DNA of 64,000 nt from NCBI GenBank assembly GCA_020746835.1, contig JAGPNK010000010.1, positions 930,001-994,000 of the forward strand. Direction: 5' to 3'. Shown here piece by piece: positions 10,528 through 29,964 of this stretch. The notes below the pieces were generated by a model, which did no database searches, had not been told where the DNA came from, and saw only the letters and a list, made by a program, of their open reading frames with translations. This DNA is from Stachybotrys elegans (taxonomy: Eukaryota; Ascomycota; Sordariomycetes; Hypocreales; Stachybotryaceae). The stretch's first letter is position 1, and the number at the start of each line of letters is the position of its first letter. The translations under genes and the position numbers were made by a program.

Positions 10528-11329
10528 AGGATCATCTTGGCCAAACTCACCACCGATGGGGGCATGAGTCAACATCGCAGGCCCCGACGGATCATTCCAT
10601 GCTTCGCACAGTCTCGACACCTTCGAACGTCTTCCATCATCCGGATTTTATGTCTTATACCTTGAGAGCGTTTTTGTGCATTATTTTTTTTATTTCTTCT
10701 TCTCTTTCCTCTTCTGATTTCCTCTTTATCTGTACGGAATGGCAGGCGTTGGATACGAGCGGAATGGCTTATGACATCTCTTCAGAAATGCACAGATGGA
10801 CGACGCGTTACCATGGCAAATTTACAAGCCCCCACAGGCTGTGCGGTGGTCTCTGCATCGTCAGAGTTCGGAGGGGGTTGAGGAATAAGGAGGCTTAAGT
10901 GATAATTGACACAGGCCTAATGCAGCCGTTGGCCATTGACAGAGGTTCAGGTCGGAAAACGGGGGCAGAACATAAGTACAGGCATACAGTATAGCACGTT
11001 GAGCGGAATCGACTAAGATCACCTTACGCCTTGGGCTTTGCCTTGAGACCAACCGGCTTACGCTGCCAACATCCTGCACCGCCAGTCATGTCATATCTTT
11101 GTCTTGTCCGCGTGTATGCGGGTGGGCTGTCATGACTCGGTCGTCGATTTTTTTTTTCTTGTTACTCTTGGCATCTTGCGTAAGGTCAACGCTGACGGGA
11201 CGGAGTCGAGCCGGAGGGGAAAAGGTGAAGCAAAAAGCAGAAATGAACAGAGCCCACCCACCAGAAAGGCCTGTTTCTGACAGTCGCATCAAGGATGAGG
11301 CCTCTTGGGGCCCTAGCTCCCTATTCTGT
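10528..11329. other. Intergenic, left border of the accessory island
   Basis: About 0.8 kb with T-rich runs (for example 10680-10720 and 11147-11160). No coding frame that I would support. Similarity to copy 2 becomes visible only from about 11330. Confidence 0.5.
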
Positions 11330-11714
11330 TTGCGCCGACCCTGACTTATTGCTTCTTCTGCTCTCCGTTGTCCTGTGCCGCAGCATCCATGTTTGCTTTT
11401 CCCTCTGCCTCTTCCCAAGACGAATGGCCCTGAAGGATGTCAGCTTGCCGACTATGTTCTACACCACGACTATGAGCCTCAGAAGATCGGACCAGAGTCT
11501 ATTGGCAATCAACCCCCTCCCCGGCTTACCAGAACAAGGCGACATGCGCTGGCAGCAGGGATAACATGTTATCCTTGCGCTGCGCACCCGCACCACGCCT
11601 GGATGCCGTCCCCCCTGCTCATCGAGCCGCCGAGCCGTCTCTAGAACTGCTTGAGGGTTGCCTGCACAGGAATGGACAACAACGTTGGTCCACAGCTGTC
11701 ACTGATCGGAGTTG

Positions 11715-11723
11715 TATATAAAA
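11715..11723 (+). promoter_or_regulatory. TATA box of small gene at 11845
   Basis: TATATAAAA, 122-130 bp upstream of the ATG, followed by a pyrimidine-rich leader (CTTCTCTCCTCTTCCCC). The same TATA-plus-leader arrangement is present in the copy at 21818, whose coding region is gone. Confidence 0.7.
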
Positions 11724-11844
11724 GGGGCCGTATGGACGGGCGTTGGGTTTCTTTCTGCACCCATATCTCCCAAGCTTCTCTCCTCTTCCCCTTTTTCTGC
11801 ATCAGACTCAGCTGAACGCTCTCCTACCCAAACTCAAGAACACA

Positions 11845-12216
11845 ATGAACACCTCTGCGCAAAGCTCTGTTTCGCGTCGTCGAGTCGTCACCTATGACTC
11901 CAAGCAGATCGCTCTGGAAATCACAATCAAGTTGGCTAGAGGCGAGATCACGCAGACGACGGGTAAGCATTCCACCACGGTCCGTACTGCCCAGCTGATA
12001 CTGGTCTAGTTCTTCAGATTGAGGACAAGGACGGGCAATTTCGCATGCACTACACCAACGGCGAAAACACCGTTACCTACGACAGCGAGGTAATGCCTAC
12101 GTCTTTACTACTCCCCTAGACAATTGTGTATTAAGTGAGCTGCGCTGACAATACAAATGTGGTCTATCTAGCCCAAATCTTCCCAGCCCTCCACGCAGCC
12201 CGCTAGAGCGGCCTAG
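11845..12216 (+). CDS. Small three-exon family protein, subfamily 1 (intact member D)
   Basis: Proposed CDS join(11845..11962, 12010..12089, 12172..12216), 80 residues. Introns are 47 nt (GTAAGC..CTAG, phase 1) and 82 nt (GTAATG..CTAG, phase 0). Exon 1 ends KQIALEITIKLARGEITQTT, exon 2 reads VLQIEDKDGQFRM and HYTNGENTVTYDSE, exon 3 PKSSQPSTQPARAA. The core pattern hydrophobic-x-hydrophobic..D-G..R-M-x-x-T-x-G-x..V-x-Y..E recurs in the pseudogenes at 19324-19675 and 24993. Exon sizes and intron phases match members at 15594, 20509 and 27414. No signal peptide or membrane segment; the central exon looks beta-rich. Function unknown and no database family recognised. It is the only subfamily-1 copy with an uninterrupted frame. 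Confidence 0.6.
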
Positions 12217-13652
12217 AAACGCCTATCGACCCAGCGAGACCTTGTTCTATAGGACTTGGATAGCACATAGGATTGGCTGATCCACGTTAAGTGAAGGTCC
12301 AAGGGCGCCGCGATAATTGGTATGCAGGTTGGAATTGTGATGAGGCTGGGACGCGGGGTCGGGACGGAGAGTTTTGTTCACCATATACAGAGCAGGAACT
12401 GCCTATGTACCTCAAGGTTATAATAAAACGAAGTGAGTTGCTTGTAGCTGTATTTTTTTCGTGGATCCGAAACTCCACCGCCTCCCAGTGAGCAGAGCTT
12501 CCAAGCCTTTCAGGCCGCAACCAAGTGCGGATGCTTCGTCAACGTCTTCTCATACCTGTAGTTAATATCTATCACCCCCATACCATCTCAGCTGTCCTGT
12601 ACTGGGTATGAGGGTGTGGCAGAGAGTCGGGACTCGTGACGGGGGTCCAGGCTATGTAGATGAAAGGAGTCGTTTCTCCCCCCCTAGAGACGGGTCCATT
12701 GTTTCAGTGTATCACATTGCCAGGACGATCAGATAGACATGGAAAGGCACAGGCGCCTCTAACCTGGAGTCAAAAGGAGGAGCATGCCCTGCAACTGCGG
12801 AGGCCTCGAGTTCGGCATGCTTCTTGACGCAGACGGTGCAGACGACGGAGGAGATTTTCGGATTGGGTAAGCCCTGACCCATGCTTGCAGGGCCCTTGCT
12901 ATCGCTGCTTCCTCCATCTCGTACTACATACCTCTACTTGGCATCACAAGGCATTCAAGATTGCCGGGTGTATGGGCTGAAGTGGGAGCTTGGCTCCAAC
13001 CCCGCAGCTGTGGCACGGCGCCCGCAATTAGGTTCACCTTTGTTGCTCAGGCCCCATTCTATGCGGCCCTGACGACCCGGGGGCGACCGGCGGTAGGTCC
13101 TAGTTAGGACTTGGACAACTGCTCAGGCTGGGTGTTGGGCGGGTCAAAACGATGCATCACATCACATAGGACGCACACCAACAGCCCCCCTTTCTGCTCG
13201 CCTGTTGGCTCTCATTTTTCTTCCGACCACTTGATACCGCTCTCTCTCTCCACAAGCTATTCAGGTGGAAGGCATGGAGGGAAGTGAGAGAGTCGATATG
13301 TGTCTCTCCCATCTCAGAGCCGTCCAAGAAGGTGTGGATGGGCATGGGACATTTTGTAGAAGGGCATCTCAGAATTTTACTCGGCCTTTCCATCTTGGGG
13401 CTTGTTTGGAACGGGCTTCTTCAGGGTCCAATCCACAACCAGCATGTCGGATTCGTCAAGCGCTGAGGGATACCTAGAGCCCTCATGTCAGACGCTTGTG
13501 TAGCCGTGTGCAAAGTGGGGCACTGTCTTGGCCGTGCACGGTCAAGCAAGCTTAAAGATTCCGGAATAATCGGACGATTTATTGACGGCTCAGCCGCCCA
13601 TGCCATACACACAGGTAGTCTCGCGGCGTTTCAGTACCCACTCTGGACTGCA
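12217..13652. other. Inter-member spacer of copy 1
   Basis: Contains sequence matching copy 2 at 21960-22540 and 23200-23700. Within it, 12790-12970 read on the minus strand retains a short shared coding-like block (TVCVKKHA) related to the decayed gene at 22177-22680 but internally deleted. The counterpart of the exon-like frame at 23225 is here (about 13255), with its acceptor CAG altered to AAG. No intact gene. Confidence 0.5.
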
Positions 13653-13890
13653 ACAAACACCTCGAGACGAGCCTTGAAGATCATGCTCACGGGTGCGCAG
13701 CGGAGAGGTCGCATGGTTCACCACAATTGCCCCCACCGCCTGGTTAACGTCTGCTTTTGAAGACGTGCCGCATGCACTTGATCTCTGGCAAGCACAAGGC
13801 CACCTCCCACAAGGCACTATCCACAACTTTCATCTTTATTTTTGCCCCATGTACGGAGTAGCTATTCTTATGTTAGCTGAAAGCGCATGA
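13653..13890 (+). pseudogene. Subfamily-1 small-gene relic H
   Basis: Aligns with the pseudogene at 24993 and with member D. The codon matching the ATG is ACA, then NTS; an internal deletion follows, then LKIMLTGAQRRGRM at the end of exon 1. The exon 2 relic retains CGC ATG CAC TTG followed by a TCT GGC AAG core (RMHLISGKH). The donor GT is GTTCAC-like and no frame is continuous. A decayed copy. Confidence 0.55.
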
Positions 13891-15593
13891 CGGTCGCACA
13901 GCACTGACGTCTCGATTCTGAGGGGCCTCAACCCAGGCGTATGGGGATGATCTGCCAGGCCCATGGACGGTTTAAACGGGGGTAGGGTGTGTCGATATCG
14001 CGCATCCTGAGGAGGCTGGGATGGAGCTACAGGACAGAGGTCTGCTGTCGTTAGCCGGGCATACACAGAGCATCTATTAGACGCACCTGAAGCCTGACAC
14101 GTCATGATTTAGACTGAAGGGGAAGGAGCCGCGTGTGATTACGTCTACTTGGTAGACCGCCTTAGCCATTTGAAGTTCTCGTCACCTGCATGGAAGTGCC
14201 ATTCGGACGCCAGTGACGGAAATTGGTCCGTGCAATACATATCGACTGAACCAAGCGCTCCCATACGGACAGAGACGACGTATGTCCCATCCACCCCCCC
14301 CCCCCCCTTTTCCTAGTGTTGGTGGGCAATTGGGGGCGAAGAAGCTAGTACGGTACGCTCAAGCTTCACATTTGGTTGATCGGGATGGGATCAAAGCCAC
14401 CGTCGTCGGAAATGAACTGTACCCGGGTTCAAACCATGACATCAGGTACGTCACTGCGAGGCTGGTGCTACTTGCTCTATGACTCTTTCGTTGGCTCTGG
14501 GTGGTCGGTCATTATAGAGATAGGAAGTATTCGCTATCCTTCTCTTCTACCGCTCGCTTAGACTAATGCTTCTGAGCTGAACGCCATCCATTAGTCTTCG
14601 TTATGAGAGTGGCTCAATTCCGACTGGGGGGTCAGTTTCGAGTTTCCTTCCCCCCCGGCACCCAGATCCACACTCTACGACGGACAGTGCTCCTATTGGT
14701 GGGCGGTGAGCATCTTATCATTGCATCTCATGATATATCTCCACTATAACGCCACGCGGACAGCTCTCCGATTGATCAAGATCTCCCCCCCACATATCCC
14801 ACAGGACTTGGGGATTTGCGTGCAGGAGTATGTTGGTGGGTTAAGACTCCTACGTATGATGAGAATCCCCCAGCATCCGTATTGCTAGCAAAGAGATACT
14901 TGTCTCGGCGAAGGCCAATGGGCGCCCGGTCAAAGATCATACATAGCATAGGAGCATGGGATCATGAGGGCATGATGTATGAGATTGGACATGACTTCAT
15001 TTGGTTCGAGCGTTAATATGGCGGAGCAGGAACCGGCCTTCGTCCAGCATGCCGCATGTCAAGACGTAAAGCCACTCACACCATAGCCTGCATGGCAGAC
15101 GGCCGCCTCAATTGAGGCCATCTCTAGGACAAGGGGCCCTGTCTTGATGAATTCTTTTCTGGCCATGCAGACTGGACTCGCATGGCCCTCAGGGATCAGT
15201 CGTCATCCACACAACTCAGCCCAGCCGCCCGCTGGACTCCCCGGCTCTCTCTTCCCTCCTCCCTTCCGTTTCATGTGCTGCGCTTTACAGGCTTCCCTTC
15301 TGGCTGTATGTCCTGATATCGTAAGGGCCGGCATCTCCCTCCCCACTCACACCTCAAGAAACAAGGCGGTATTATAACGGGAAGGTGATCTGTGTTAACG
15401 CGGACATTGGCGTGGAAGGGGATGGGATTGATGCCAGCATTCTTTCCTATAAAGAGGGCATGCTTAAGCATCTTGAAGGTTTGTGATCATACCCATCTTC
15501 ATATCCACCTCTCTACTCGCCCTTCTCCAATATTTTGGCTTACATCAGTCTCACTCTCATCTCTCCCTCTGTCGCGTTATCGCTTTCTCAGTC
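13891..15593. other. Copy 1 spacer and promoter of member A
   Basis: Homologous to 25255-27413. It includes the block at 14390-14545 that also occurs inverted at about 18330-18490, and a poly-C run at about 14287-14307. TATAAAG at 15448-15454 lies 140 bp before the ATG at 15594. I see no intact coding frame. Confidence 0.5.
15448..15454 (+). promoter_or_regulatory. TATA box of member A
   Basis: CCTATAAAGAGGG, the same position and flanks as CCTATAAAAAGGG upstream of the paralogue at 27414. Confidence 0.6.
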
Positions 15594-15922
15594 ATGGCTA
15601 AATACACCAAACATACAGGTGATATTGAAGCTACCCGTCGTGCCTATAGGAGACACTACTTGAAGCTGGCCTCCAATGCCTCCAAGAGAAAGCACGCCAA
15701 CATGGGTACTACCTCTGACCGGCTCCTGTTTCTCTGGCTCATTACGATATATAGGGGTTTGTTACGAGATTAGGCCGGACGGCGAGCATCTCACCATCAT
15801 ATCTCAGGATCTCAAGATCGTCAGAAACAAGGTACGACTCTCCCCAACATCTTATCCTGTAGGATCGCGCTTATGATGCCCGGGAAACGTAGCAGTCGAC
15901 CGTTATCACAGGGGCGAAGTAG
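15594..15922 (+). CDS. Small three-exon family protein, subfamily 2 (member A)
   Basis: Proposed CDS join(15594..15705, 15755..15831, 15893..15922), 72 residues. Introns 49 nt (GTACTA..ATAG, phase 1) and 61 nt (GTACGA..GTAG, phase 0). Exon 1 is basic and helical-looking (ATRRAYRRHYLKLASNASKR), exon 2 is GVCYEIRPDGEHLTIISQ then DLKIVRNK, exon 3 QSTVITGAK. The gene structure is the same as paralogues at 20509 and 27414; its first intron differs from that of 20509 at only 7 of 49 positions, whereas exon 2 differs at 38 of 77. No signal peptide or membrane segment. Unknown function. A real gene is inferred from three co-conserved open exons with valid splice sites. Confidence 0.6.
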
Positions 15923-17930
15923 GCGGCTCGAGCCCGACGAAAAGCAGCCAGGTGGGAAGCGGCTTGGGCACGGGTTTTGGTGCTAGGATGGCAGGCCATT
16001 TGTTGTAAACGAAGCAGTGTAATGTCAAAAGAAGGACGAATACTAGTGTAAAAGCTTGACTTAGTTCCTACATGCACTGTAATGGCTCATATTCTATGTC
16101 AGTCCTTGTCGTGTTAGCCCTGTGTCCATGTTCAGGTTGCCCTTTCGCACAGACTTCCCATCCACTTGTGTTCACGCTGTCGTCGCTGGAAATGACCTTG
16201 GCACGGCATGAGATCACTATCACTAATGCAGTGTGATAGAGTGGATTGCACCAACCTTGCCGCTCCAGCTAAAAAATGCATCACTAGGCTATTGCTGGCA
16301 CACAAGAGGGACAACGCAATTACAGCATACAATATAAACATCGACTCAATGGACATAAGCTCTGGTTAGTTGGTGCTGAAACATCTATGCGCCCGCTAGG
16401 CATCGCAGGTATACTTCATTGGATGGACAGCATGCTGCGATTGCCTCTTCCACATTACAAACGGGTAATTTCACTGCTCTGCCGCGCATGGGGTGCCTCC
16501 AAGGTGCGAGATAAGAGATTGTATGCTCTCCCCTTTAAAGGTCTTAAGCCCTCTGAATCTTCCATATTCCCAACTCCACCCTCATTGACCTGTAGAGGAT
16601 ATTGGTGTTGAGCCCGTTCCCAAATCAGGGAGGACCCCGAAGGCTGGCTAACCCATGACGACGGATACCATCCCAATGATTCATTGACCGCCAGTTTTCT
16701 GAGCCCAGGACATGAAATTGGGGCTGCACTATACCAGACCCCTGCGAGAAGGATTTAGGTGTTGTTTCTCTGCAGGAGTTGTGGTTGCAGACGCACCGCC
16801 TGCAGCCGTAGCTATGGTGTTGTTGTGGATCATTGAAACAACAAGTCTGTGACCGTGCTCGGTCCACCACCATTCCGGCATGTCAGCTTCGAGCTCCACC
16901 TCAGATTCGGCCCGCCAGGGAAGAAAATGTCGTAGGGCCAACAAGTACATGACCTCCAACGCGATTGCCACGCACCCAGTTGCAATCTTTGGGAGTGAAA
17001 TGGCCCTTTCTAATTGCCATGGATCTCGTCAGCATTCAGCCAAACAAAAGGTAGGCAGCAGTTGCTTCCGATTGTAAATCCGACATTGGTTGGTTGACAT
17101 GATCGCAATCTCTCTCTCTCGAGGTAGCTGCTCCAGGTAGAATTGGGTGTGACCGAGCGCTGGACCCAAATGCATCTTGATCAACATCATGGAGGTTCGT
17201 ACATAGGCGAAGCTGTCAAGGACGGGATCGGCGGAAGGGAAAAGGAGGGTCCATCTCAATGAACCCACAGTGCCCTGCCCTGTAACACACCCCAGGAGGT
17301 GTACCCTCTAAGAATGCAGGCCGCAGCGATTTTATTTATACAATTCTTTCCGGTCGGCTGGTGAAAAAATTTTCACCTGTATAGACACCATCTTCATGCA
17401 ATGGTAGTCAGTTATAATTTAAAGGTTATTTATACCTGAGTTGGAGCTTTGTGAATCTATGTGAATAGCAATTTGGGCGCTATAGAAAAAAAAGAAAAGA
17501 AAAAAAATCCTCGAACTTCCAAGCTACTAAATGTCAGCTACCCGTAGGCCATCACCGATTGTCATCGTGAAATTTAGCGTGCTTGCCCCTCCGTCTTCTC
17601 GATGCCAGTGACCATTAATATCCCACTGCCCAGGGGCGCAGGGTCGGGATATTCCACCTTGGCCATTCTTGCCCACCTTGACCACTCTTGCCCATCTTGA
17701 CTAGATGCTGGCAAGTCAATACAAATCCGAAATAGCATCAGGCCTTAACCTTTGCATGGGCCCTCATAACCATTGCACATCCGTGAATTGTCAATCCCGG
17801 TCGCATACTAATGCACATACACAGGCAAGAAGCAGACACAAACATGAACGGTCAATTCGACCCTGGTTCTAATTCTCGGCAGCGCCCCCCATTTCATATT
17901 CATCATCTGTCTACCTTCATCGATGTAAGG
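15923..17930. other. Copy 1 right part
   Basis: Starts with the 3' flank conserved in all three subfamily-2 loci (core GGATGGCAGGCCATTTGT at about 15988). It then holds the decayed minus-strand gene described separately and an A-rich run at 17485-17508. Homology to copy 2 runs to about 17930. Confidence 0.55.
16440..17270 (-). pseudogene. Decayed minus-strand gene, copy 1 version
   Basis: Minus-strand blocks keep coding-like similarity to 28250-29010: TQFYLEQLPREREIA here against TQIYLDQPPREREIA there; VAIALEVMYLLALRHFLPW (a possible membrane helix) against VAIVIEDATFF then stop; and a GGVG..LLSRTLEAPHARQ block against GGVG..SHLGRTPGVAEQ. Frames are not continuous in either copy and no start or family is recognisable. 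I read it as an old multi-exon gene duplicated with the module and then lost. Confidence 0.35.
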
Positions 17931-19323
17931 AACATAGGTGCGTGGATGGGGAACGAAATGCCAACCCACAAACTCCGGTCGCATCGATTAGGCCGCTTCC
18001 GTTTATTCACAACACACAGTCTCATGTTGCCGATCTTTAGCCCGCGCGAAGCAATCGACGGTACTAGCAATCTAGCAATAGCGATGCCGACGGATCCCTC
18101 CGAGGGTGTGTGGAAGTAACTTGGCCCCTTGGAGTGTCCACAGCTTTGGAGGAAGGCCCTCGAAGAAAGGGTATCTATCTACATGCTCTGGTAGATGGCA
18201 CAGTAAAACCAAGCCAGAAATGAGTCCTCTCATCTGTGTAGTCTGTATCCCCCCTGTTCGTAACTGCAGGTGGTCCAGTACAAGCTGAAGCCAGATAAAC
18301 GAGCCTTGACCCAAGGGCAAGGCCCGTAGCGAACAGAAGACGATAGGGGTGGTGAATCCTTCTCATCTCTATACCAACCAACCACTCCGACCCGCGCAAG
18401 AGTCATACAAGAACCAGGATAAGCCTTGCAACGACACACCTGAGATATGACACGTCATGGTTCGAAGCACGGGCACAGTTCATTTCCGCCTTGACGGTGG
18501 CCTCAGTTTGATCAGCCAAACTCGGACTTGGAGTGTACTCGATTCCAGCATTCGCTCCCCTTCTGGCTCTGCGACACCCAGGAGCCACCCTTGACCGTCA
18601 CAAAGCACGGGGCAGTGTCATGGCTGTGAGATTCTAGAATAGGACACCCATGTCCAAACACTCCAGACACTCTCTTACAGCCAGCCAGGTCCCACCCCCC
18701 GGCTGACGATGAATGACAGCCGGAGGTGCCATGCCACTTGAGATGAGCAGCCCGAGATATCTTTGGTACAAATCCATCACCTATATGCCGTCTCACTGGA
18801 GGATCCGGGTTCAATCAATATGTACTGCGCCAGTCTCCTTGCTGTCTTCTGATTGACATAGTGTCGCGTGGGTGACAAGGAAAACTTACCCACCTTCACA
18901 TGACGATACACTCACCAATAGGTAGCTTCTCGCGGTGAGGACCATGAAGAGAAATGAGCGATTCAAGTACGAATACGATGCGAAATCGTGGCAGTACGCA
19001 TGGGCTACGTATACTATGAGGGATTGATAGGGGGTTGTATTGGGCCACGGATGGAGCGCCATGCACTGGACATGAAAAGGCATCCGGTCTACGAACTCAA
19101 CCATAAGCAACTTCATTTTGTTGTAATTGTGAGGCACAAAGCCAACTCCCGCCGTGTGTGTAGCTACCGACGCTCGACAGCTGTTTTGCATCCCTGTCTC
19201 AGCCTCTTCACGATGTGCGACCTCCACACAAATCCCCATGTAAGCCATCCAAGCGCCTCACAGATCTCATCCCCAACCTGCCACTCTTATATTGAGACCC
19301 CACTGGATTGACGAAGCTAGTGC
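17931..19323. other. Third module copy, inverted part, and unique spacer
   Basis: From about 18150 the minus strand matches copies 1 and 2: 18330-18490 reversed corresponds to 14390-14545 and 26075-26235, and about 18190-18215 reversed to about 26440. The stretch 18840-19300 holds no frame I would support. Confidence 0.5.
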
Positions 19324-19800
19324 CTAGTGGCGGTCTTGACCATGGCGGGCTGTCAGCTCAGCCTATAGCCAATGGTGATGTTGAAGGCAAAAGGAAAGAT
19401 GGAAGCCATGGCTATTGCCTCGTTGTAGCTGACCTTGTGTTTGCCACAGGTGAAGGCCATGCGTAGTTTCTTGTCGCTATCCTCGACAACAAAAGCCAGG
19501 CCAAGGCTAACTGGGCAGCGCAAGTGCTTGTGGTAAAGGGCATACCCGTCTTGGCTTTGACTTCTCCTCTGAGCAGCTTGCCTACGCCCCCCAGAGCCAA
19601 CTGCTTAGGATCATAAGGGCAGGCCTGGGGGGTCTCTGCTTCAGGCGATCAGGAGCCTTCTTTTGAAGCGGTCATTGCGGTTTTGAGCGAGATGGGGGCG
19701 TCTGGGAGTGTCTGGTCAAATCTGATGTGGAGGGAGGCGAGAAGGGCAGGCTAGGAGATTCGTCCAAATGGCTCCATTTATACTTAACTAGCGTCGACGG
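18150..19800 (-). repeat. Module copy 3, left half, inverted
   Basis: Order on the minus strand is TATA-like (AGTATAAATGG at about 19780), pseudogene F, then the blocks matching 14390 and 26440. That is the same order and similar spacing as copies 1 and 2 in direct orientation. Confidence 0.65.
19324..19675 (-). pseudogene. Subfamily-1 small-gene pseudogene F
   Basis: Minus-strand three-exon layout as in member D. Exon 1 19675..19546 has TGA as codon 9 (MTASKEGS*), then an open frame ending YDPKQLALGGVGKLLRGEV and KAKT, closely matching D's YDSKQIALEITIKLARGEI. Exon 2 keeps VVEDSDKKLRMAFTCGKHKV and SYNE, matching D's core. The first acceptor AG appears lost (GGCT in place of CTAG), and the second donor is GC. 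Exon 3 would be AELTARHGQDRH. One nonsense codon plus splice damage make it a pseudogene, apparently a recent one. Confidence 0.6.
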
Positions 19801-20508
19801 TATTCAAATCACCCCAGTGATTGTCGACTTTGCTCCTACACGGCCGACATGGGCGAGTAACAAGATGGCGGGTTAGGAACCCGGCTGGCGTCCCGACTGT
19901 CGCCCATCATGGCCCTGCAGGTGGCCGTCTCGAGCGATGCCACCTCGCCCCAGAGGTGGCCTGGTACAAATTACTTGAACCGTCACTGCCCGGGCGAGTA
20001 TTGGATCTGGGGCATCCAGCCCGGATCCAAATTCTCCACCATATTCGCTGGCTCCAGGTAAGGAGGGTGAGCTGACTCCAGCATTATCCACACGCCTCTC
20101 CCCCTGCGTCCTTCTTAAACTCTCTCCTGTCCTCTCATCTCTTCTCCTTACTGGCCTACGTTCCAGCTTGCTTTCCTCATGCCCTGTGAGCCGACATCTC
20201 CCTCCCCACTCACACTTACAATCATCCAATAGGTATGCCATGCTTTTCCGAGAATGAGCGTGACTATAACGCGTTCTAGGCGTTATTGTCCACGCGATTT
20301 CTCGCGATGGCTGACGCGCAGATATACGGTAGCATAGGCACGAGCATCAATGGACGCGACTCTGCCAGCACTGCTATATATAGAGGTTCCCTACAGCATC
20401 CCGAAGGCTCGTGTTTGCACTACCCAACCCCTGACTCATCCTTCTTCAATATTTTGGCGAATATCAACCTCTCTGTCTCTCCTAGCGCTCTCCCATTGCT
20501 CTACCAGC
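19676..20508. other. Inversion junction and promoter of member B
   Basis: The change from inverted to direct module sequence falls between about 19800 and 20080. Direct similarity to copy 2 starts near the CCACACGCCTCTCCCC string at about 20088. TATATATAG at 20375-20383 precedes the ATG at 20509 by about 130 bp. Confidence 0.5.
20375..20383 (+). promoter_or_regulatory. TATA box of member B
   Basis: TATATATAG followed by AGG, at the same distance from the ATG as in the other family members. Confidence 0.6.
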
Positions 20509-20836
20509 ATGGATATCCATCCAGAAGACACAATCGATAACCAGGCCGCCAATCGCGCCCTTAGGAGGTTTGCCTTGAACGCATTTTCCAATGCCTTTGG
20601 GGGCAAGCTTGTCAAGAACACAGGTACTACCTCTGACTGGCTCATATTTCTCTGGCTCACTTCGATGTACAGAATTTCGGTTTGCGATCGATCCGGACGG
20701 TATGCGTGCTGCCATTACTTCGACCAATACCAACGTCAGCGTTAACGAGGTAAGACTACTTGCCCCATCTACTCCTCCAGGATAGCGCTTAAGATTCCCG
20801 GAATAGCCGTCCACTGCTATGGCAAGAAAGGAGTGA
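20509..20836 (+). CDS. Small three-exon family protein, subfamily 2 (member B)
   Basis: Proposed CDS join(20509..20623, 20673..20749, 20807..20836), 73 residues. Introns 49 nt (GTACTA..ACAG, phase 1) and 57 nt (GTAAGA..ATAG, phase 0). Exon 1 starts MDIHPEDTIDNQAANRALRR, exon 2 EFRFAIDPDGMRAAITS then TNTNVSVNE, exon 3 PSTAMARKE. It shares the first four residues' pattern (MD-x-H) and the E-D/E-T motif with member C, and PDG in exon 2 with member A. Otherwise the exons are strongly diverged although introns and flanks still align well. No signal peptide or membrane segment; function unknown. Confidence 0.6.
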
Positions 20837-21804
20837 GCAGCTCGAGATCGCGGGAAAGCAACCTGTCAAGGGGGCCGCTTGAGGGGTGGGTTTGGTGCTA
20901 GGATGGCAGGCCATTTGTCGCAAACCAAGCCCAGCGATCGTGATGTCCAAGAGGAATGAAGACTGGTAGAGAGGCTTCACTTAGTTCTTGCATACAATAT
21001 AATACCTAGTACTCCGTGCCAGCCGTTCGTATTTGTCACCCCTGTATCCCCTTTTAGGATTCCCCCTTTGCTCCGTCTTCTCATTCACGTGTGCCCATTC
21101 AATTGGGGATGATTGTCTTATGGCGCGCCCGGTGACGGGCATTTCTCGCGAGGATTTACGCTGTAGTGGCGTGTGCCAGCCTCGACGCTCCAGGTGGGCT
21201 TTTCCCGGCGGGCTAGCATGGCTTCTCGGTCGCCGGCTTCTCTTTGTTGTCACTTTTGGCGTGTTGCCGAGCCCCAGGAGGGCCGACCCGTTTCTAACAA
21301 ACGCCACGGGGACGTCAGGGCATTCCCTTTTCTCCTGGTGGCGCCGACCCTGACTCGTTTCTTTCGTCCCGGTCCTGATTTGCTTTTTTCCCCGCCTCCT
21401 CTCGAACCGAGGGGCCTACGGAAGAGTGGCTGATTGCTTTGCTGGCAAGGCTAACTGTAATCTGGGTCAGGGAAACAGCAGAAGCGCTGGAGGATGTATT
21501 TCCTACACCATGAACATGTGATTCAGCAGTAAGTTAGGACACGGTTCAAATAAAGTTGAACAAGATTCTGGACAAAACAGACAAGAAAGACTCAGACCTG
21601 ACAAACATGGAAGGGCGAGGTGGGCGCCAAGCCAGGCGGAATGAAGCACTGACAGGTATGTTATCCCTGCCCTTCACCCGCACCTGCACGCCTGGATACT
21701 AACCAAAAAGAAGAAGCCACGGCCTGCTTATCGAACTGCCATCGAGTCGCCGCCAGAACCTCACAGGGATAGCGGCGGCAAACGCTGGTCCACAGCTGTC
21801 ACTG
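20837..21804. other. Spacer between copies 3 and 2
   Basis: The first 270 bases are the subfamily-2 3' flank. From about 21330 (GCGCCGACCCTGACT) similarity to copy 1 at 11330 begins. No supported gene. Confidence 0.5.
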
Positions 21805-21945
21805 ATCGAAATTTGTGTATAAAAGAGGCCGTATGGGCGGGCATTCGATTTGTTTCTACGCCCGTATCTCCCAAGCTTCTCTCCTCTTCTCTTTTCTGCA
21901 CCAGACTCGGCTGAACGCTCTCCTACCCACACTCAAGAACACAAT
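21805..21945 (+). promoter_or_regulatory. Orphan promoter and leader of a deleted subfamily-1 member (E)
   Basis: TATAAAA at 21818-21824 and the following leader match 11715-11845 of member D closely, up to CTCAAGAACACAAT. The next bases then match 12560 onwards of copy 1, the region downstream of D's stop. The whole coding sequence with both introns is therefore missing while promoter and 3' flank remain. Confidence 0.7.
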
Positions 21946-22176
21946 ATACATTATATCATCTCGTCTGCCTTGTACTGGATATGAGGGTGTGGCAGAGAGT
22001 CGGGACTTGCGACAGGGATCCAAGCAGTGTAGATGAAAGGAGTCGTTTCTAGCCCCCAGAGACGGGTCTAGTGTTTCAGTGGACGAACATCTTGCCAGAA
22101 CGGCTAGATAGGCATTGGACAGGCACATGCGCCTATGGTGCTGGTCAGGGGGCGCGTTCTGCAGCTTGGGAAGTTT
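21946..22176. other. 3' flank of the deleted member E
   Basis: Matches 12560-12790 of copy 1 (shared string GAGGGTGTGGCAGAGAGTCG). No coding content. Confidence 0.6.
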
Positions 22177-22680
22177 CTAGTTGGGCATCTTCTTGACGTA
22201 GACGATGGTATAGACGTTTAGAGTGGGCATGCCTGCCCCCATGCTTAACGACCCCTCCTCATTGGTATAGGTGGCGTTCTCGCAGCCGCGCACAGTCTAG
22301 ATTCTGGTCCTTGCGGCTCGACCAGTCGACTGTCCTTGCGTGACAGCTTGACCAGGACCTCGTTGTTTTCCCCCCTGTTGTTGAGGTTACTGGGGCACTC
22401 GGCGCCACCCTTGCTGTTTACTGGCTGCAGGTATCCTCGTTACCGTTGCTTCCTCCATCTCGTACTGCATGCCGAGTACCTGTTATCATCACAGGCGGCG
22501 TCCAAGATTGCCGGGTACATGCTTGCCTGGCTGGCCAACATGCCGTGGGCTAGTGCGTATTTTGTCAGCAGAGCATGGTCCACTTCCACGTGGCAACTGG
22601 AATGGATGTCCGCAGGGGTTTATTTTCAACAAAGAGTACGGAGCTCCCTACTCTTTGCCGCTGTACCCAGATGAGTGGTG
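22177..22680 (-). pseudogene. Decayed minus-strand gene of unknown family
   Basis: The minus strand shows several protein-like stretches in different frames, in order: LLKINPCGHPFQLPRGSG then PCSADKI; MQYEMEEATVTRIPA; NNRGENNEVLVKLSRKDSRL; and a C-terminal ENATYTNEEGSLSMGAGM then VYTIVYVKKMPN followed by TAG at 22179..22177. Frameshifts and stops separate them. Copy 1 keeps only a deleted remnant (12790-12970). The Cys-containing NPCG..PCSAD part hints at a secreted protein, but I do not recognise the family. Confidence 0.4.
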
Positions 22681-22683
22681 AGA

Positions 22684-22885
22684 GTAGATTAGTATATAAT
22701 GCCTAAGGCCCATAGCTATTAGCAGTATTAGATTTATAAGGGAGATTGTAGATCTAGAGTTCTCTTACCTATATACCAGGTATAAAATTGAGTAGCAAAT
22801 ACTGGGATGTTATTATGTACCTCTTGTTGGAAATTAACCCCTGCGGGCTACAGGCCTAACCACTAGAGGACGGGAGATGGGCATT
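22684..22885. repeat. TA-rich relic with a tRNA-like head on the minus strand
   Basis: About 22690-22830 is conspicuously TA-rich. Reading the minus strand from about 22885, CCTCTAGTGGTTAGGCCTG followed by TAGCCCGCAGGGGTT resembles a tRNA D-arm/box A region, so this could be a tRNA-derived SINE or an LTR end. Too short and degraded for a firm call. Confidence 0.25.
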
Positions 22886-23029
22886 GGCCCTGGCTGTGGA
22901 GTAAATACATGTTACCTCCGAAGCCCCGCCATGGTCACTGCCAGCACAGAGCCACTCACCTATGCTCTGTGGAGGAGGCCTTGCATGTTTACTTTCTTTA
23001 ATTATGCAAGTGTATAAGTATGTTGCATA

Positions 23030-23095
23030 ATCCCACCATCCCACCATCAATCCCAAAATCTCACAATCCCACAATCCCACAATCCCGCAATCACA
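23030..23095 (+). repeat. Simple repeat, CCCACAAT-like units
   Basis: Imperfect tandem units of the type ATCCCACA, six to seven copies, followed by a CA/CG-rich stretch. Confidence 0.6.
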
Positions 23096-23224
23096 CAGAC
23101 ACAAACGCACACCCAGACGCTACACACCTAGACGCGCATACGGCACGCGCGCTCCCCCACCTCCCCTGCTCGCCCATTCTCCTTTCCCACCCTTGTTCTG
23201 CTTTCTCCAGCTTTCTCTCCACAG

Positions 23225-23356
23225 GCTATTCCTGTGGAAATCCCCGAGTCCCTCACATCCTCCCATACCTCCCCTGAAGCATGTCTCCCCACATCAGAAC
23301 CGTCCAAGAAGGCCACCGCTGCAACTGAACCCAAGGTTGAACCAATCCAAACGTGA
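23225..23356 (+). pseudogene. Orphan terminal-exon-like frame
   Basis: A consensus acceptor (CTTTCTCTCCACAG) is followed by 43 open codons (AIPVEIPESLTSSHTSPEA, then ..EPSKKATAATEPKVEP) and TGA. The composition resembles a disordered protein C-terminus. Copy 1 has a counterpart at about 13255 with CAG changed to AAG. I find no upstream exon, so it is probably a remnant. Confidence 0.3.
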
Positions 23357-24389
23357 AGGTGAATTGAGGGGATCAAGTGAGTCCTAGAGAACTTTCGTGT
23401 AGAATATGTCCCATCAGAGCATGTCGGAAGTGAAGACCTAAGACCAAATACATATCTGACTCCCTTTTGCCTCTTTAACTCCCTTTCTTGTCGTGGTCTT
23501 CTTGGAACAACTTCGAACTCCAGTCCACAGCCAGCATCTCGGATTTGTATGCAAGGCGCTGGACGGGACCGTGCCAACCTTGTCGCTCCATATGACATTC
23601 CCCTGCTGGCAGATAAGGAGAGGGACGCAAATGGCATGCGCCGAACGCTTGTGCGGCCATGCCCCTTGCACGGTACTGGAGCGCAGTTGGTTGTGATGCT
23701 TTCCCAAAGCAGCGAAAATGCAACTCCGATGTCGATTCCTCCGTGGCTATGGAGTGCGCACATCACAGATATTGACCGCCGCTTTCCGGAACACAGCGCA
23801 CGGAATTGCCTGCCCTCCGATCGGCCCTTGCGGTTGAGGAGTGCGAGGAGCATTCGGATACAAGTCGCCTGCAGTTTTGCCTACAGATGTACCGGGAGTA
23901 ATTGTGGTAGTGCTATGCCATTATACAGCAGGGCATTAAAATATGTCTAGTCCAGTAGCAATTACCACTCGGGAGCTGGGTTCCATCAAAATTCAACGTG
24001 TTGCAAAAGAAGGAGTTGTCGGCCCTACGACATCCAATGCCAATTGACATGCTGCCGGCTACAATGTTTGAAGGGGACCCTTCCGGCATCCGTTGGTGGG
24101 GTACAAAAAGGCAAGGTTCAGAAGAAGTGTGCATGCTCGCGAATGATCAGCACCGTAGGGACTGTGTGGATGCCAAGCTGGGCGGCACGAAGCGAACGAG
24201 GCAAAGCAAGACTTTGGTGTTGCCTAACTTTGGCAAACCCCAATTTCTACAACACTGGTGGGTGCTCCTGCCGGCCCCATAACACAAAGAACGCCCCTGG
24301 AAGGTTGACAGACGAAAAAGGAAAGGCCCTGGTATGATTGGCAAGCTTGGTCAAGCCTTTCCTCTTCTGCATTGGTTCATGTTGCCCAT
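23357..24389. other. Copy 2 spacer
   Basis: 23460-23600 resembles 13370-13480 of copy 1. Long open frames on both strands (for example 23128-23853 minus) overlap each other and lack protein-like composition. No gene supported. Confidence 0.45.
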
Positions 24390-24545
24390 GCCAAGCCCCA
24401 AGTCGCCCAAATCGCCCAAATCGCCCAAATCGCCCAAATCATCCAAATCATCCAAATCATCCAAATCATCCAAGTCATCCAAGTCATCCAAGTCATCCAA
24501 GTCATCCAAGTCATCCAAATCATCCAAATCATCCAAGCACCCCAG
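24390..24545 (+). repeat. 9-bp minisatellite
   Basis: About 16 head-to-tail copies of a 9-nt unit (CCCAAATCG, then CCAAATCAT and CCAAGTCAT variants) with ordered variant blocks. In frame it would encode Ser-Lys-rich repeats, but it lies in no credible gene. Absent from copy 1. Confidence 0.9.
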
Positions 24546-24992
24546 TCACCCATGTCAACCATGTCACCCATGTTGCTTTTATCCTAGTCATCTGGCACTC
24601 TGGTCCGTACTCTGCTGTTCCGGTGTATTCCGGTACATTTTAAACTGGCCACCGCCAGACCTTTTCTTTTGTAACTATTCGGAGATTCGGAACCCCAGTC
24701 TATTGGCCTACATATGTGCATACATCCTGGTGCTCCACTATTAGCAAGACCCCATAAAATCTTAACGAGAATCTTTCCCTCTTGTAGAGATTCGAATCCT
24801 CAGTCTTCTCTGGCCTCTGGCCCATGCGCCATGGCGGTTGCTCGCCATGGCTGTTTTAAGGTTGACAATGGACGGGGGATTGAGCTTTACCTCCTGTAGC
24901 TAGCTCGACGCTCCGGAATAGCCAGACGATGATGAGCTGTTCCTCCGGTGTCCTGTGCATGCACCTGAGTCTTCTCTCGGGGCTCTCTCGGG
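24546..24992. other. Spacer after the minisatellite
   Basis: No coding frame, RNA gene or further repeat that I can support. Confidence 0.45.
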
Positions 24993-25260
24993 AGGAACAC
25001 CTCCACGAAAGGCTACGGTGCGCTTGACGTAGTCCGCCTCTAGATCGGCCTCAAGCAGTTGGCCCTGAAGACCATGCTCACAGGGCTCAGCGGAAAGGTC
25101 GCAGACGAGACGGGTAGACCCTTGATCACAATTACCCGCCCTTGCCAGCCAACGTCGGTGCTGCTTTCGAAGACCTTCCGTATGGACTTGACCTCGGGCA
25201 AACGCATGGCCATCCCAACATTTGCCCCATTTATAACTATTCTTGTGTTAGCCGAAGCGT
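24993..25260 (+). pseudogene. Subfamily-1 small-gene pseudogene G
   Basis: Exon 1 aligns with D over its length: the start codon is AGG (RNTSTKGYGALDVVRL), followed by in-frame TAG, then IGLKQLALKTMLTGLSGKV, then ADET and a GTAGAC donor at 25114. Exon 2 keeps the CGT ATG GAC TTG ACC core (FRMDLTSGKR) matching D's FRMHYTNGEN. Start loss and a nonsense codon rule out expression of the ancestral protein. Confidence 0.6.
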
Positions 25261-27413
25261 CCCATGGTTCTCTCGTGCATGGTGGTTCGCACGGCACTAA
25301 CGAGGCGTTTCGATCCACAGTAGGCAGATCGGCAGGGGGGTCCGCATCGTGAGGAGGCTAGGACCAAGCTGCAGAACCAGGTCAGATATCATTGCCTTGG
25401 TATACACAGAACGCCGGTTGGCCATGCATATGATTCGACTGAATTGGAAGGAGTTGCGTACGATTCCGTTTACTTCGTGGACCGGATACTTTTACCGTGT
25501 CAAGCGGACGGCGCTTCATCCGCAGCCCAACCAATTCTACCTCTCTATCAACCCCCCACAGCCCATGCAGCAGCCCATACTGTCACGATGATTCCACGCC
25601 GTGTTGGTACTTGCATCGCTCCCCCCCTCTCCAAGGTCCTCACCGTGCGTAACTACCTATTGGCGAATGGGTCGCCATTTGAAGGTTCCTTATCACCTGC
25701 GCGACAACGCATCATCCAGACACCGGTGACGGAGATTGGTCCGTGCAATGCATTCTAATTGAACCAAGTCCTTCTCTACGTATAGAAGCGACGTATGCAT
25801 GTCCCCTCCGGGCAAGGTACCTCGGACTATCGAATTCAAGTATCATGGCGTCTGAACTCCCAACCGTCGTCACCAAGGGGACCGGTCGGCCGCAAGAGAC
25901 GTAAACACCGAGAAGAAGCCAAAGCCGCTTGGACAAGTGTTTTTGTGGTCTAGAACCCTGCCACTATGACGCTGTCCGCGTATTTTAGTTTCATGGCGGC
26001 CAAGGCTGCCTCCCTGGGAGTTGGAGGGGCGATAGAAGCAGATGAGCTAGAACCAGGCACTCTGGATGGTGAGACTGGTGCCACCGGCAAGTCGGAGATG
26101 AACTGTATCCATGTTCAGTTCATGACGTGGCCGATTTCAGGTGTATCGACGTGAGGCTGGTGCTAGTTCTTGTATGGCTTTTTCGTGGGTCTGGGTGGCC
26201 GGTTGGGATAGAGATAGGAAGGATTCGCTAACATCCTTGACGTTTGTCGACTCATCCCTCTCAGCCGAGAGTCGTCTATCTAGCTTTACCTTGGATTGTA
26301 TGCGAGGTGTGGTACACTGGGGAGATTTACGACTAGGGGGGAGGGCATCGGACCACGCAGGTACGGACCACGCAGGCAGAAGGGTCCAGGTCGTTTCCAC
26401 CCCCCATCGCCCCTCACCGCGACGTACGGGTGTTTTAATGTGCCATCTGCCAGGCACGGAAGGATTTCCTTGCGGGTCCGTGCTCGGGTGCTATGCGTTC
26501 TTGCAATTGCTCAAGCATCCCTCCCGCATAGCCTCTTGGGAGGGGTGACCCATTGTTCAGGGGCTTGGGGGCCGTGGAGACCTGGTGAGTTGACACTTCG
26601 GCTGGTCTGAGATGATCCACCAGCATGCTTATTGTGAGCACAGAGTGAAGTGGCTCGGCAAGGGCTGATGCGCCGCGAGGGTGCCTGGTCCAAGAACAAT
26701 AGCACGGAAGCACCATGCCTATAAGACTGGATATGACTTCGTTGGTTTGAGTAACAACACTGCGGCGCAGGGGCCCGGCTTGCGCCCGGCTTGCCGCTTG
26801 CCAAGAGCTGAAGCCACTCACTCCGTCGCCGGTAGATGGCCGCATCAAGTGAGACCACCTCTGGGACGAGGGGGGCTGGTAGAAAGAGTACACAGACCTT
26901 CACCGTCTTGATGAACATTGCTTCCTGGAGCATCCAAACTCGAGTCAAGAATTCTCTCATGCTCTCCGGAATTGGTCATCGTCCACACGCCTCTACCCAG
27001 GCGCCCGCTGGGCTCCCCGGTCCTCACATGCCTCTTCTCTTCCGTTTCCTAGCCTGCGCCGAGCTGGCTTGCCTTCTAGCTGTATATCCTGATATCCCGT
27101 GGACCGGCATCTCCCTCCCCACTCACACTTGTAGGCGTCCATGTCCAACAAGGAGCAAGGCTCTATTCCAACGCGAAGGGCGAGCCTGGGTTGTGGACGG
27201 GAACATCAATGGCAACGCGGACATTAGCGTGCGATGTAGGTGAATTGCGCCAGCACAGTTTCCTATAAAAAGGGGGTTTGCCCAAGCATCTTGCAGATTA
27301 ATGTCGATATCCATATTCACATCTAACTTGCGACTCATCCCTCTCCCATCAGTTGCTTTCCATCGGTTTCTGTCTCTCCCTCTGTCTTAGCGCTCTGCCG
27401 TTGTCTTACCATC
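25261..27413. other. Copy 2 spacer and promoter of member C
   Basis: Homologous to 13891-15593. TATAAAAA at 27264-27271 lies 143-150 bp before the ATG at 27414. Several open frames here are short and have no counterpart frame in copy 1. Confidence 0.5.
27264..27271 (+). promoter_or_regulatory. TATA box of member C
   Basis: CCTATAAAAAGGG, equivalent to 15448 in copy 1. Confidence 0.6.
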
Positions 27414-27750
27414 ATGGATGCTCATACCGAAGAGACAGTCTGTGTTCCGAGCACCTTTCTGGCTGCTTTTACAAGCGGCATGGAGATGATGTTCAAGGCC
27501 CGCGAGAGAGGTCATAACGATAACATGGGTAAATACCTCTGGCCTGAAACCCCTTTCTATGGCTCATTGTTATGTACAGCGGTTCATCTCAAAATGGTTA
27601 AGGGGCAAGATCTCCAGGGCGCCGTGGTTTCCCAATATGCCAAGGTCGTGGTCAACGAGGTACAGCTACTTTCTTCAATTATTCTTATGGGATTGCGCTG
27701 ACGATGGCTGGGAAATATAGCAGTCTACTGTTATTATGGGGAAAAAGTAA
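27414..27750 (+). CDS. Small three-exon family protein, subfamily 2 (member C)
   Basis: Proposed CDS join(27414..27528, 27580..27659, 27721..27750), 74 residues. Introns 51 nt (GTAAAT..ACAG, phase 1) and 61 nt (GTACAG..ATAG, phase 0). Exon 1 starts MDAHTEETVCVPSTF and ends RERGHNDNM; exon 2 is AVHLKMVKGQDLQGAVV then SQYAKVVVNE; exon 3 QSTVIMGKK, nearly the same as member A's QSTVITGAK. It sits at the same place in copy 2 as member A in copy 1, so the two are positional counterparts. Exon 2 is one codon longer than in A and B. No signal peptide or membrane helix; function unknown. Confidence 0.6.
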
Positions 27751-29964
27751 TCAGCTCGAGCTCACGGGACAGAAACCAAGCGCGGGGCGGCTTGGATGGG
27801 GTTTGGCGGCTTGAGGACGGGGTCTGGGACTAGGAGGGCAGGCCATTTGTTGTGAACGAAGCAGCGTGGTGGTGCCAAAGGAAGGATGAGGTCTCGTGTA
27901 GATGTTCGGTTCAGCCCCTACATACAATATAGTGGCTTATACTTTGTGCCTGTCCTTGCCATAAGTCGTCCTTGTATCCTTTGTCAGGTAATCCCTTGGC
28001 TCGGTCTTCTCACCCACTCGTGTGAACGAAGTCTTGACCCGGCGCAGCATGAGACCATCACCGATTTAGTGCATGCTGGAGTAGAGTGGGCCAGCCTCAT
28101 CGCTCCAGCTGGACAGCGCATCACTTGGACTACTACTGCCGGCACACAGGAGGGGCGACGCAATTACAGCATGCAATGTCAGCATCGACTCGAGGAGACC
28201 AAGTGGTGCTGAAACGCATGTGTAACCCCTGAACATCCAAGGCGTCCTTCACTAGATCGACAGCATGCTCTGACTACCTCGTCCACATCACCGAACAGGA
28301 AGTTTTGCTGCTCTGCCACGCCTGGGGTGCGTCCAAGGTGCGAGGTGGTGCTCTCCAGCCTTCCCTCAGGTTCCAAATCTGCCAGGCTCCCTCCTACTCC
28401 ACCTGGAATGGCCTGTACAAGATGTTGGTTCAGAGCTTTCAGAGCCAGAAGGCTGGCTCCCCCGACGACCGAGACTATCGCGCTGATGCATTTCACCGCC
28501 AATTTGCCGAGCCCAGAACATGAAATTAGCACTGCGCTCTGGCTGGTCCTTGCAGGAAGGATGCGGGCGCAATTTGCTCGGAGGAATTCTGTTTGCAGTC
28601 GTGACTATGATGTTGTTGTGAATCATCGAAGCAACAAATCCGTCGACGAGGTCGGTCCACCTATTTGGGCATTCCCGTTGTGAGCTGCACCAAAGACTCA
28701 ATCCACCGGGGAAGAAAGAGCCGTAGGTCCTAGAAAAATGTAGCGTCTTCAATGACGATAGCCACGCTCCCGGCTTCGGTGTTTGCGGGCTGTCATGAAT
28801 GCCGTCCGCATTCGTCACGCAGGACGGGGAGGTAACCAGCAGCTACTTGAGACTGTAAATTCAGCATTGATTGATCAACACTGCCGCAATTTCTCTTTCT
28901 CGAGGTGGCTGATCCAGGTAGATTTGGGTGTGAGTGATGGCCAGAGCCAAATGCACATCCCATCTTCATCCGCATTGTGGAGAGTGTAGTCGAGACTTGT
29001 CGAGGCGATCGACAGAAGGAAAAAGTAAAGCGAGGGTTCGGCTTGACGAACCAACCCACTACCTGTCGCGCAAGGCGGCCCCCCCTGTGACGTGGGGCCG
29101 TGCAGGCCAGGGCGCACAGACACTTTTTACAATTCATCTCAGCCGCCTCATCAAAAAAGTTTTCACCTGATATACACCATCTTCATACCGATGCAACTGT
29201 TGCAATAGGAGAGATAGACCGGAGTTGGTGCTTAGGAAATTAAATGCCTATCAACTTGGTTGCTATATCAAAAAACCCTCGAGTTTCCATCACTTTTTGT
29301 CCAAAAGTTACCAACTATAGACAAGCACCTTAGCCGGCGCTGGCCTTCACGATCCCCCTCTACTGGCCCTGCCACCACTCGGAACTGCTAGCGCACCCCA
29401 CCAAGTGCCAAATCGTGACTTAAATTTGAGGTCTCTATTCCCCGCTTCCCTGCTTCTTCTCGAAATCACTGATCATTATCCCGTTGGGGGACAGGGTGTG
29501 TTGGAGGTTCCCACCTCCCTCCTTAATTCAGCGAAGAGTACGTATTTCAGGTTGACCAGACGCGAGCTAACCTGGTTAAGCAGTCAGTACAAGTCCGAAA
29601 TAGCTTCATTCTTGATGTTTTCATGGGCCCTGATAGCTGTGCTGTCATCGTATCCATCCATGAACTGTCGATCCTGGTCGTAGGGGAGAAGCAGCCACAA
29701 GCATGCACGGTCAATTCGAGCCTGGTTCTGAGTCTCGGCAGTGCTCCCTGTCATTTCATATTGATCCATCGTCTGTCTGCCTTCCATCGATTCTAGCGCG
29801 CCACAGAGGTAAAAACAAGAAATCCCGGATGCCATTTTCGTTCGTTGTACGCCAGTTCCCAGTCTAGGTGCCGCAAGCGCCGCACATTCAATAGCCTTTT
29901 CCTCGCAATGTACTGCGTTATCCATGTTCATATGTCCAGTCAGTTGTCATGGCAGCAGGCACTC
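27751..29964. other. Copy 2 right part up to SLX9
   Basis: Begins with the conserved 3' flank (GAGGGCAGGCCATTTGTTGTG at about 27835), then the decayed minus-strand gene listed next. Homology with 17330-17930 ends near 29810. Confidence 0.5.
28250..29010 (-). pseudogene. Decayed minus-strand gene, copy 2 version
   Basis: Counterpart of 16440-17270. It retains TQIYLDQPPREREIA then AVLINQC and stop, and VAIVIEDATFF interrupted by TAG with another TAG after TTGMPK. A fairly long open stretch (28179-28532 minus) begins with a hydrophobic segment LAVKCISAIVSVVGGASLLA that may be an old membrane helix. Family not recognised. Confidence 0.35.

What the first reader, a model, noticed from the sequence alone, without database searches (positions are those of the whole stretch)
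11845..27750. Unrecognised family of tiny three-exon genes (72-80 aa) dispersed in an 18-kb island
Four intact loci (11845, 15594, 20509, 27414) share exon sizes (112-118, 77-80 and 30-45 nt), intron phases (1 then 0), TATA boxes 120-150 bp upstream and a central pattern of alternating hydrophobics around a D-G turn ending in V-x-x-N/D-E. Such genes are too short for ordinary gene callers and for the six-frame ORF view, so the family may be undescribed. No signal peptide or membrane segment is visible.
Basis: partly seen in the sequence, partly recalled or inferred. Interest (0 to 1): 0.88.

Follow-up and report, generated by a model that had tools for sequence, protein, structure and literature searches.

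The report
Fast-changing tiny spliced gene family
An 18-kilobase stretch of a fungal chromosome holds four open copies and one broken copy of a tiny predicted gene that our searches found nowhere else, and in three of the copies the predicted protein-coding pieces have diverged more than the predicted introns between them, so the proteins are likely under pressure to keep changing.

Summary
The four loci are in the sequence: open three-exon models, GT..AG introns of 47-82 nt, phases 1 then 0, TATA at -130 to -150. B, C and D are paralogues made by nested segmental duplication inside the island. Their spliced frame is the only placement open in all three of 984 tested per strand. They end in three different stop codons at one aligned column, and all four genes have gene-like codon usage. 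Exons 1+2 of B/C/D differ at 46-51% of sites, introns at 22-33%, 3' flanks at 30-32%. Best reading: a young, locally duplicating gene family with likely diversifying selection. Against selection alone: synonymous divergence is raised too, and the B/D units hold other stretches as diverged. No homologue was found, with low-sensitivity searches. Expression, splicing, fold and function are untested.

The parts
11845..11962 (+). A exon 1 (predicted)
   Evidence: open frame, GT donor, codon usage of the whole CDS 0.24 bits/codon
12010..12089 (+). A exon 2 (predicted)
12172..12216 (+). A exon 3 (predicted); a second acceptor starts it at 12187, giving 30 nt as in B, C and D
11715..11721 (+). TATA-like box of A, 130 nt before the ATG
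15594..15705 (+). B exon 1 (predicted)
15755..15831 (+). B exon 2 (predicted)
15893..15922 (+). B exon 3 (predicted), stop TAG
15448..15453 (+). TATA-like box of B
20509..20623 (+). C exon 1 (predicted)
20673..20749 (+). C exon 2 (predicted)
20807..20836 (+). C exon 3 (predicted), stop TGA
20375..20381 (+). TATA-like box of C
27414..27528 (+). D exon 1 (predicted)
27580..27659 (+). D exon 2 (predicted)
27721..27750 (+). D exon 3 (predicted), stop TAA
27264..27270 (+). TATA-like box of D
19419..19675 (-). E: broken copy (in-frame stop at codon 9, altered splice sites); ATG at 19675, exon-2 homologue 19495-19419
21643..22521 (+). A': remnant of the A unit with TATA and leader, coding exons missing
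14325..17924 (+). duplicated unit around B
   Evidence: 62.6% to 26016-29791
26016..29791 (+). duplicated unit around D
19914..21199 (+). duplicated block around C
   Evidence: matches 26829-28114; 20352-21195 also matches 15420-16270
15332..15352 (+). 21-nt element upstream of B, identical at 20195 (C) and 27108 (D), 262-314 nt before the ATGs
   Evidence: 3 matches in the genome at up to 2 mismatches, all here; reversed control pattern 1
15983..16003 (+). element in the 3' flank of B, also at 20898 (C) and 27830 (D)
   Evidence: 3 matches without mismatch, all here; 3 others elsewhere with 2-3 mismatches

Best explanation
The island holds a locally duplicated family of tiny genes (four open copies, one broken copy and one promoter-only remnant), predicted to be spliced and TATA-driven and to make proteins of 72-80 residues, whose protein in copies B, C and D is likely under selection to keep changing. 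Shown by the sequence: nested direct and inverted segmental duplication, loss of copies, one conserved spliced frame, and coding exons more diverged than introns and 3' flanks in B/C/D. Inferred: the unit of promoter, leader, three exons and 3' flank spreads by unequal exchange inside the island; promoter, splice and 3' elements are held while the protein diverges, as in birth-and-death families caught in a molecular arms race. Inferred and least certain: with no visible signal peptide or membrane span and 0-1 cysteines, the proteins would act inside the cell, most likely as small binders that recognise or antagonise a partner which changes too.
For: Nested duplication, E and A'. Three-way frame unique to the gene: 2 of 984 + and 0 of 984 - placements; no frame-breaking gaps in exons 1+2; TAG/TGA/TAA at one aligned column; codon usage 0.08-0.24 bits per codon against a 95% level of 0.033 in 292 open island windows, other frames negative. 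Exon divergence 0.46-0.51 against introns 0.22-0.33 and 3' flank 0.30-0.32, bootstrap intervals of the difference above zero; simulations at the flank rate reach p 0.455 in 0 of 400 runs with omega 1 at either of two rates, and fit omega near 2. E links A with C (0 of 20000 shuffles for exon 2; local alignment P 0.0015). Island-specific upstream and 3' elements.
Against: dS is raised as well as dN (BC 0.59/1.15, BD 0.69/0.63, CD 0.80/0.78) and the three codon positions diverge alike. Over the whole B/D unit 389 of 2920 placements are as diverged as the exons, and the upstream part of C is nearly as diverged from B as the exons are. A against E shows no exon excess: exons 0.60-0.64 identical, intron 1 0.60. 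A has no direct profile similarity to B/C/D. E against B and D is not significant by local alignment (P 0.54, 0.19). In the B/D pair a longer shared open frame, of unknown meaning, lies upstream. No transcript, no relative in another species and no fold was available. Nothing bears on an intracellular binding role except the lack of other features.
Confidence: 0.5

Rival explanations
1. Real spliced genes, but the exon/intron contrast comes from gene conversion and regulatory constraint: introns, UTRs and flanks are homogenised or held among copies while the exons drift or are simply older, without selection for change.
For: dS as well as dN is above the flank rate in BC, and at the edge in CD; upstream and 3' elements are identical in three copies; A against E has no exon excess.
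Against: The bootstrap excess of exons holds against introns, 3' flank and all non-coding columns, and barely against the leader; conversion would have to respect exon borders in three copies.
Confidence: 0.35
2. Not coding: a duplicated non-coding or long-RNA region in which the frames are open by chance.
For: No homologue and no Pfam match above cut-off; exons less conserved than flanks; pairs of copies share open frames elsewhere too.
Against: Unique three-way frame, three different stops at one column, triplet-only gaps in exons 1+2, gene-like codon usage in one frame only in 4 of 4 genes. No Rfam match for 10500-30000.
Confidence: 0.08
3. Dying remnants: once-functional genes now under relaxed constraint and on the way to loss, like E and A'.
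For: Two of six loci are already broken or lost; dN/dS is 0.5-1.1 in B/C/D.
Against: Relaxation alone gives exons as diverged as flanks, not more; four copies keep frame, splice sites and TATA.
Confidence: 0.15

Closest known systems
Snake three-finger toxin genes and 'accelerated segment switch in exons' (PMC2474615; passages read)
   Same: Three exons and two introns, tiny proteins, a multigene family by duplication, introns similar (over 85% where present) while some exon segments fall to 12.5-50%.
   Different: Those are secreted, with a 21-residue signal peptide and ten cysteines; here there are 0-1 cysteines and no visible signal peptide, in a fungus, and introns of 47-82 nt.
Fungal small-ORF sets (PMC7394265; passages read)
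   Same: Proteins of 80 residues or less that standard annotation can overlook.
   Different: That survey used contiguous ORFs (getorf, sORFfinder) and 70% clustering across species; I expect it would miss spliced genes with exons about 50% identical.
Fungal HET/NLR allorecognition repertoires (PMC1805685, PMC4986451; listing and start of abstract only)
   Same: Fast-changing, duplicated fungal genes in an inferred recognition role.
   Different: Those are large proteins with HET or NOD-like domains (recalled); none of 11 island frames tested has a confident Pfam match.
DUF2188 (PF09954)
   Same: Weak match of A residues 11-53 (E 0.016, 15.8 bits).
   Different: Below the cut-off of 22 bits; matched by 1 of 4 open copies and not by the E piece.

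Membership tests
Three-finger toxin genes | ten conserved cysteines (feature from PMC2474615) | tested here: not met
   0-1 cysteines in A-D
Three-finger toxin genes | signal peptide | tested here: inconclusive
   only hydropathy was computed
Three-finger toxin genes | introns conserved, exons divergent, three exons (how it works, not membership) | tested here: met
   for B/C/D; not for A against E
DUF2188 | score above Pfam's cut-off (22 bits) | tested here: not met
   best 15.8 bits, A only; E piece none
HET/NLR allorecognition genes | HET, NACHT or NB-ARC domain | tested here: not met
   no such Pfam match in A-D or in 11 island frames
Birth-and-death tandem gene family | duplicates plus broken or lost copies in one cluster | tested here: met
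Birth-and-death tandem gene family | copy number differs between species or strains | not testable with these tools
   The genome search states that this genome has no relatives in its holdings
Positively selected gene family | dN above dS | tested here: not met
   BC 0.59/1.15, BD 0.69/0.63, CD 0.80/0.78: above 1 only in BD and CD, and slightly
Positively selected gene family | exons diverge faster than introns and flanks | tested here: met
   B/C/D; weaker over the whole B/D unit

The most novel reading that the evidence does not exclude
An undescribed fungal family of intracellular microproteins in which a fixed scaffold of promoter, introns and 3' flank carries hypervariable exons: a venom-like arms-race gene architecture working inside a fungal cell, for recognition or antagonism, in a class of spliced genes that contiguous small-ORF surveys cannot see.
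Probability: 0.25. Interest if true: 0.75.

Novelty: new variant of a known kind. Interest (0 to 1): 0.5.

Why it matters
If the copies are expressed, they are a protein family with no detected relative, hidden from contiguous-ORF surveys and from homology search, and found through its duplicated non-coding scaffold. Exons more diverged than introns in an apparently intracellular fungal family would point to an unknown molecular conflict and make it testable with a handful of short genes. It also suggests a general search: look for duplicated blocks in which the only shared frame is the least conserved part.

Tried and rejected
Homology: the four-sequence alignment and A alone against 5.8 billion proteins (37 and 2 candidates shared words, none scored E 10 or better). 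B, C and D were searched there only as members of that alignment, of which at most 100 words are used. PDB, Pfam, Rfam for 10500-30000 and phages for 11000-19000 gave nothing above cut-off for the family. A control with a flanking DUF2828 gene shows that the protein collection holds many Hypocreales, but the top-scoring other protein is 52% identical over 95%, so close kin seem to be missing and the absence of homologues is weak evidence (best 120 of 326 listed). Copies elsewhere in the genome: none seen, with one hit at E 0.33 inside a 421-residue frame taken as chance. These genome searches are not sensitive: protein A did not find E, C did not find B or D, and DNA of E did not find A. Protein B was not searched. 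Direct homology of A with B/C/D by profile comparison: none. The alternating-hydrophobic claim: not above shuffles. Domain or transposon genes in the island: no Pfam hit in 11 frames beyond one at E 0.098. Seven paper searches listed no description of such a family that I recognised; this is a statement about those listings only. Structure prediction was not run: the tool takes proteins read letter for letter from the DNA, which spliced proteins are not.
Full report
WHERE. The window is 930001-994000 of contig C2 of a 43.4-Mb assembly in 61 contigs. A flanking DUF2828 gene finds its top-scoring relatives in Hypocreales fungi, the best other one 52% identical over 95% of the query, so the genome is very likely a hypocrealean one without close kin in that collection. 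The island lies between a ULP1-type protease gene (Peptidase_C48, 9284-10069) and SLX9 (29965-30612, minus). None of 11 island frames tested has a confident Pfam match.

THE OBSERVATION. Four loci (A 11845, B 15594, C 20509, D 27414) read as three-exon genes with the stated exon sizes, GT..AG introns and phases 1 and 0. TATA-like boxes are at -130, -146, -134 and -150. A has two possible acceptors for exon 3. The downstream one (exon start 12187) gives a 30-nt exon, PSTQPARAA, that aligns with exon 3 of C, PSTAMARKE (5 of 9 residues, P 0.005; with B 0.09, with D 0.21, jointly 0.01). The protein motif is only partly there: D lacks D-G, strict V-x-x-N/D-E is in C and D only, and hydrophobic alternation is no better than in shuffled segments.

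ANATOMY OF THE ISLAND. Self-comparison shows a nested segmental duplication. 14325-17924 (around B) matches 26016-29791 (around D) at 62.6%. 19914-21199 (around C) matches 26829-28114, and part of it matches 15420-16270. Pieces at 18239-19679 are inverted copies of 24989-26335. 11552-12974 (around A) matches 21643-22521 in two pieces: this is A', with TATA and leader kept and the stretch of the coding exons missing. 11775-12142 matches, inverted, 19744-19354. That holds a fifth copy, E: the order TATA, ATG, exon 1, intron, exon 2 on the minus strand, with a stop at codon 9 and altered splice sites. Genome searches with five stretches of island DNA and with proteins A, C and D found no convincing copy outside the island, but they also missed known copies inside it. 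A 21-nt element 262-314 nt upstream of B, C and D is identical in all three and has no other match in the genome at up to two mismatches; the reversed control pattern has one. A 3' element is without mismatch only in B, C and D; three places elsewhere have 2-3 mismatches.

ARE THEY CODING? Five lines agree. (1) In the three-way alignment of B, C and D a spliced frame of this geometry is open and frame-coherent in all three at 2 of 984 + placements, both in the gene's own frame, and at 0 of 984 - placements; in pairs, other placements are open too (BC 23, BD 2, CD 18 of 984 on +). (2) Gaps in exons 1+2 are all of 3 nt; from the flanks 2.2-3.4 non-triplet gaps per pair were expected. (3) Under neutral change of 28% the chance that the frame stays open is 0.16, 0.32 and 0.22 for B, C and D, modest evidence by itself. 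(4) The stop codon is TAG, TGA and TAA at the same aligned column. (5) Codon usage favours the coding frame in all four genes, at 0.08-0.24 bits per codon, and scores the other two frames below zero; the 95% level of 292 open windows of the island is 0.033 and their maximum 0.251. Those windows were not cleared of the genes themselves.

ONE FAMILY? B, C and D are, by DNA. A against the B/C/D profile gives nothing, and A against B, C or D gives P 0.15-0.65 by local alignment. E is the bridge. It shares 21 of 50 residues with A. Its exon-2 peptide, as long as that of C, matches C end-anchored with a score reached by 0 of 20000 shuffles, D at P 0.008 and B at P 0.037; by local alignment E against C is P 0.0015, but against B 0.54 and against D 0.19. 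Exon-2 DNA gives P below 0.001 for E with B, C and D, and 0.001 for A with D, but 0.2 for A with B or C. I set the end of E's exon 2 myself by its likeness to the other copies. I read all as one family, with A's place less certain. A profile of exon 2 built from the five finds those five frames in the window and nothing else below E 0.33.

EXONS THAT OUTRUN THEIR INTRONS. For BC, BD and CD, exons 1+2 differ at 46, 47 and 51% of sites; introns at 22, 33 and 32%; the 3' flank at 32, 30 and 32%; the leader at 40, 38 and 40%; all non-coding columns at 38, 31 and 38%. Bootstrap intervals for exon minus other lie above zero in each comparison, barely so for the leader (0.001-0.164). With the gene geometry slid along the alignment, 15 of 762 placements are as diverged; the eight most diverged start at columns 476-485, beside the gene's own 490. 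Aligning each feature apart gives the same picture for exons 1 and 2; exon 3 is 57-70% identical. In simulations at two non-coding rates, omega 1 reaches p 0.455 in 0 of 400 runs each, and omega near 2 fits.

AGAINST SELECTION ALONE. NG86 gives dN/dS of 0.59/1.15, 0.69/0.63 and 0.80/0.78, and the three codon positions diverge alike. dS is above the range simulated for omega 2 in BC, within it in BD, and in or out by the rate chosen in CD. Something raises all exon sites, or the non-coding parts have been homogenised. Over the full B/D unit 389 of 2920 placements are as diverged as the exons. The upstream part of C is 56-59% identical to B and D, near the exon level. A against E shows exons as conserved as intron 1. 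Selection for change is therefore likely, not shown.

HOW IT LIKELY WORKS. Shown: duplication, loss, frame conservation, exon-biased divergence in B/C/D. Predicted: transcription from the TATA promoters, splicing of two short introns, proteins of 72-80 residues. Inferred: unequal exchange makes copies; selection keeps the regulatory and splicing scaffold and favours protein change; the proteins work inside the cell as small binders in a conflict, with self-recognition or antagonism of parasites or rivals as candidates. None of these roles was tested.

KNOWN KINDS. The closest working parallel is the three-finger toxin gene family, with three exons, introns over 85% identical where present, and some exon segments at 12.5-50% (PMC2474615, passages read). 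Membership fails on the cysteines. The fungal small-ORF survey PMC7394265 (passages read) used contiguous ORFs and 70% clustering, which I expect would miss this family. Seven paper searches listed no description of it that I recognised.

VERDICT. A real, apparently undescribed gene family limited in these searches to one island, probably coding (about 0.9, my judgement), with a striking exon/intron contrast whose cause (selection, conversion, or both) is open. New variant of a known kind; interest 0.5.

Noticed in passing
window 15099-15374 and 26836-27168: The B and D units share a 92-codon open frame upstream of the genes, with all four gaps a multiple of 3 (27, 3, 9, 18) and 75-76% identity at each codon position; it covers the 21-nt element and may be a second small gene or chance.
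   Followed up: partly
window 24380-24554: A 9-nt tandem repeat (CCAAATCAT-like), about 17 units, inside the island.
   Followed up: no
window 22610-22846: A 30-nt inverted repeat, 83% complementary, with 177 nt between the arms, in the A' region; perhaps a trace of a small mobile element.
   Followed up: no
window 16590-16991 and 23676-24070: A further duplicated block (57% identity) from the downstream part of the B unit, between A' and D.
   Followed up: no
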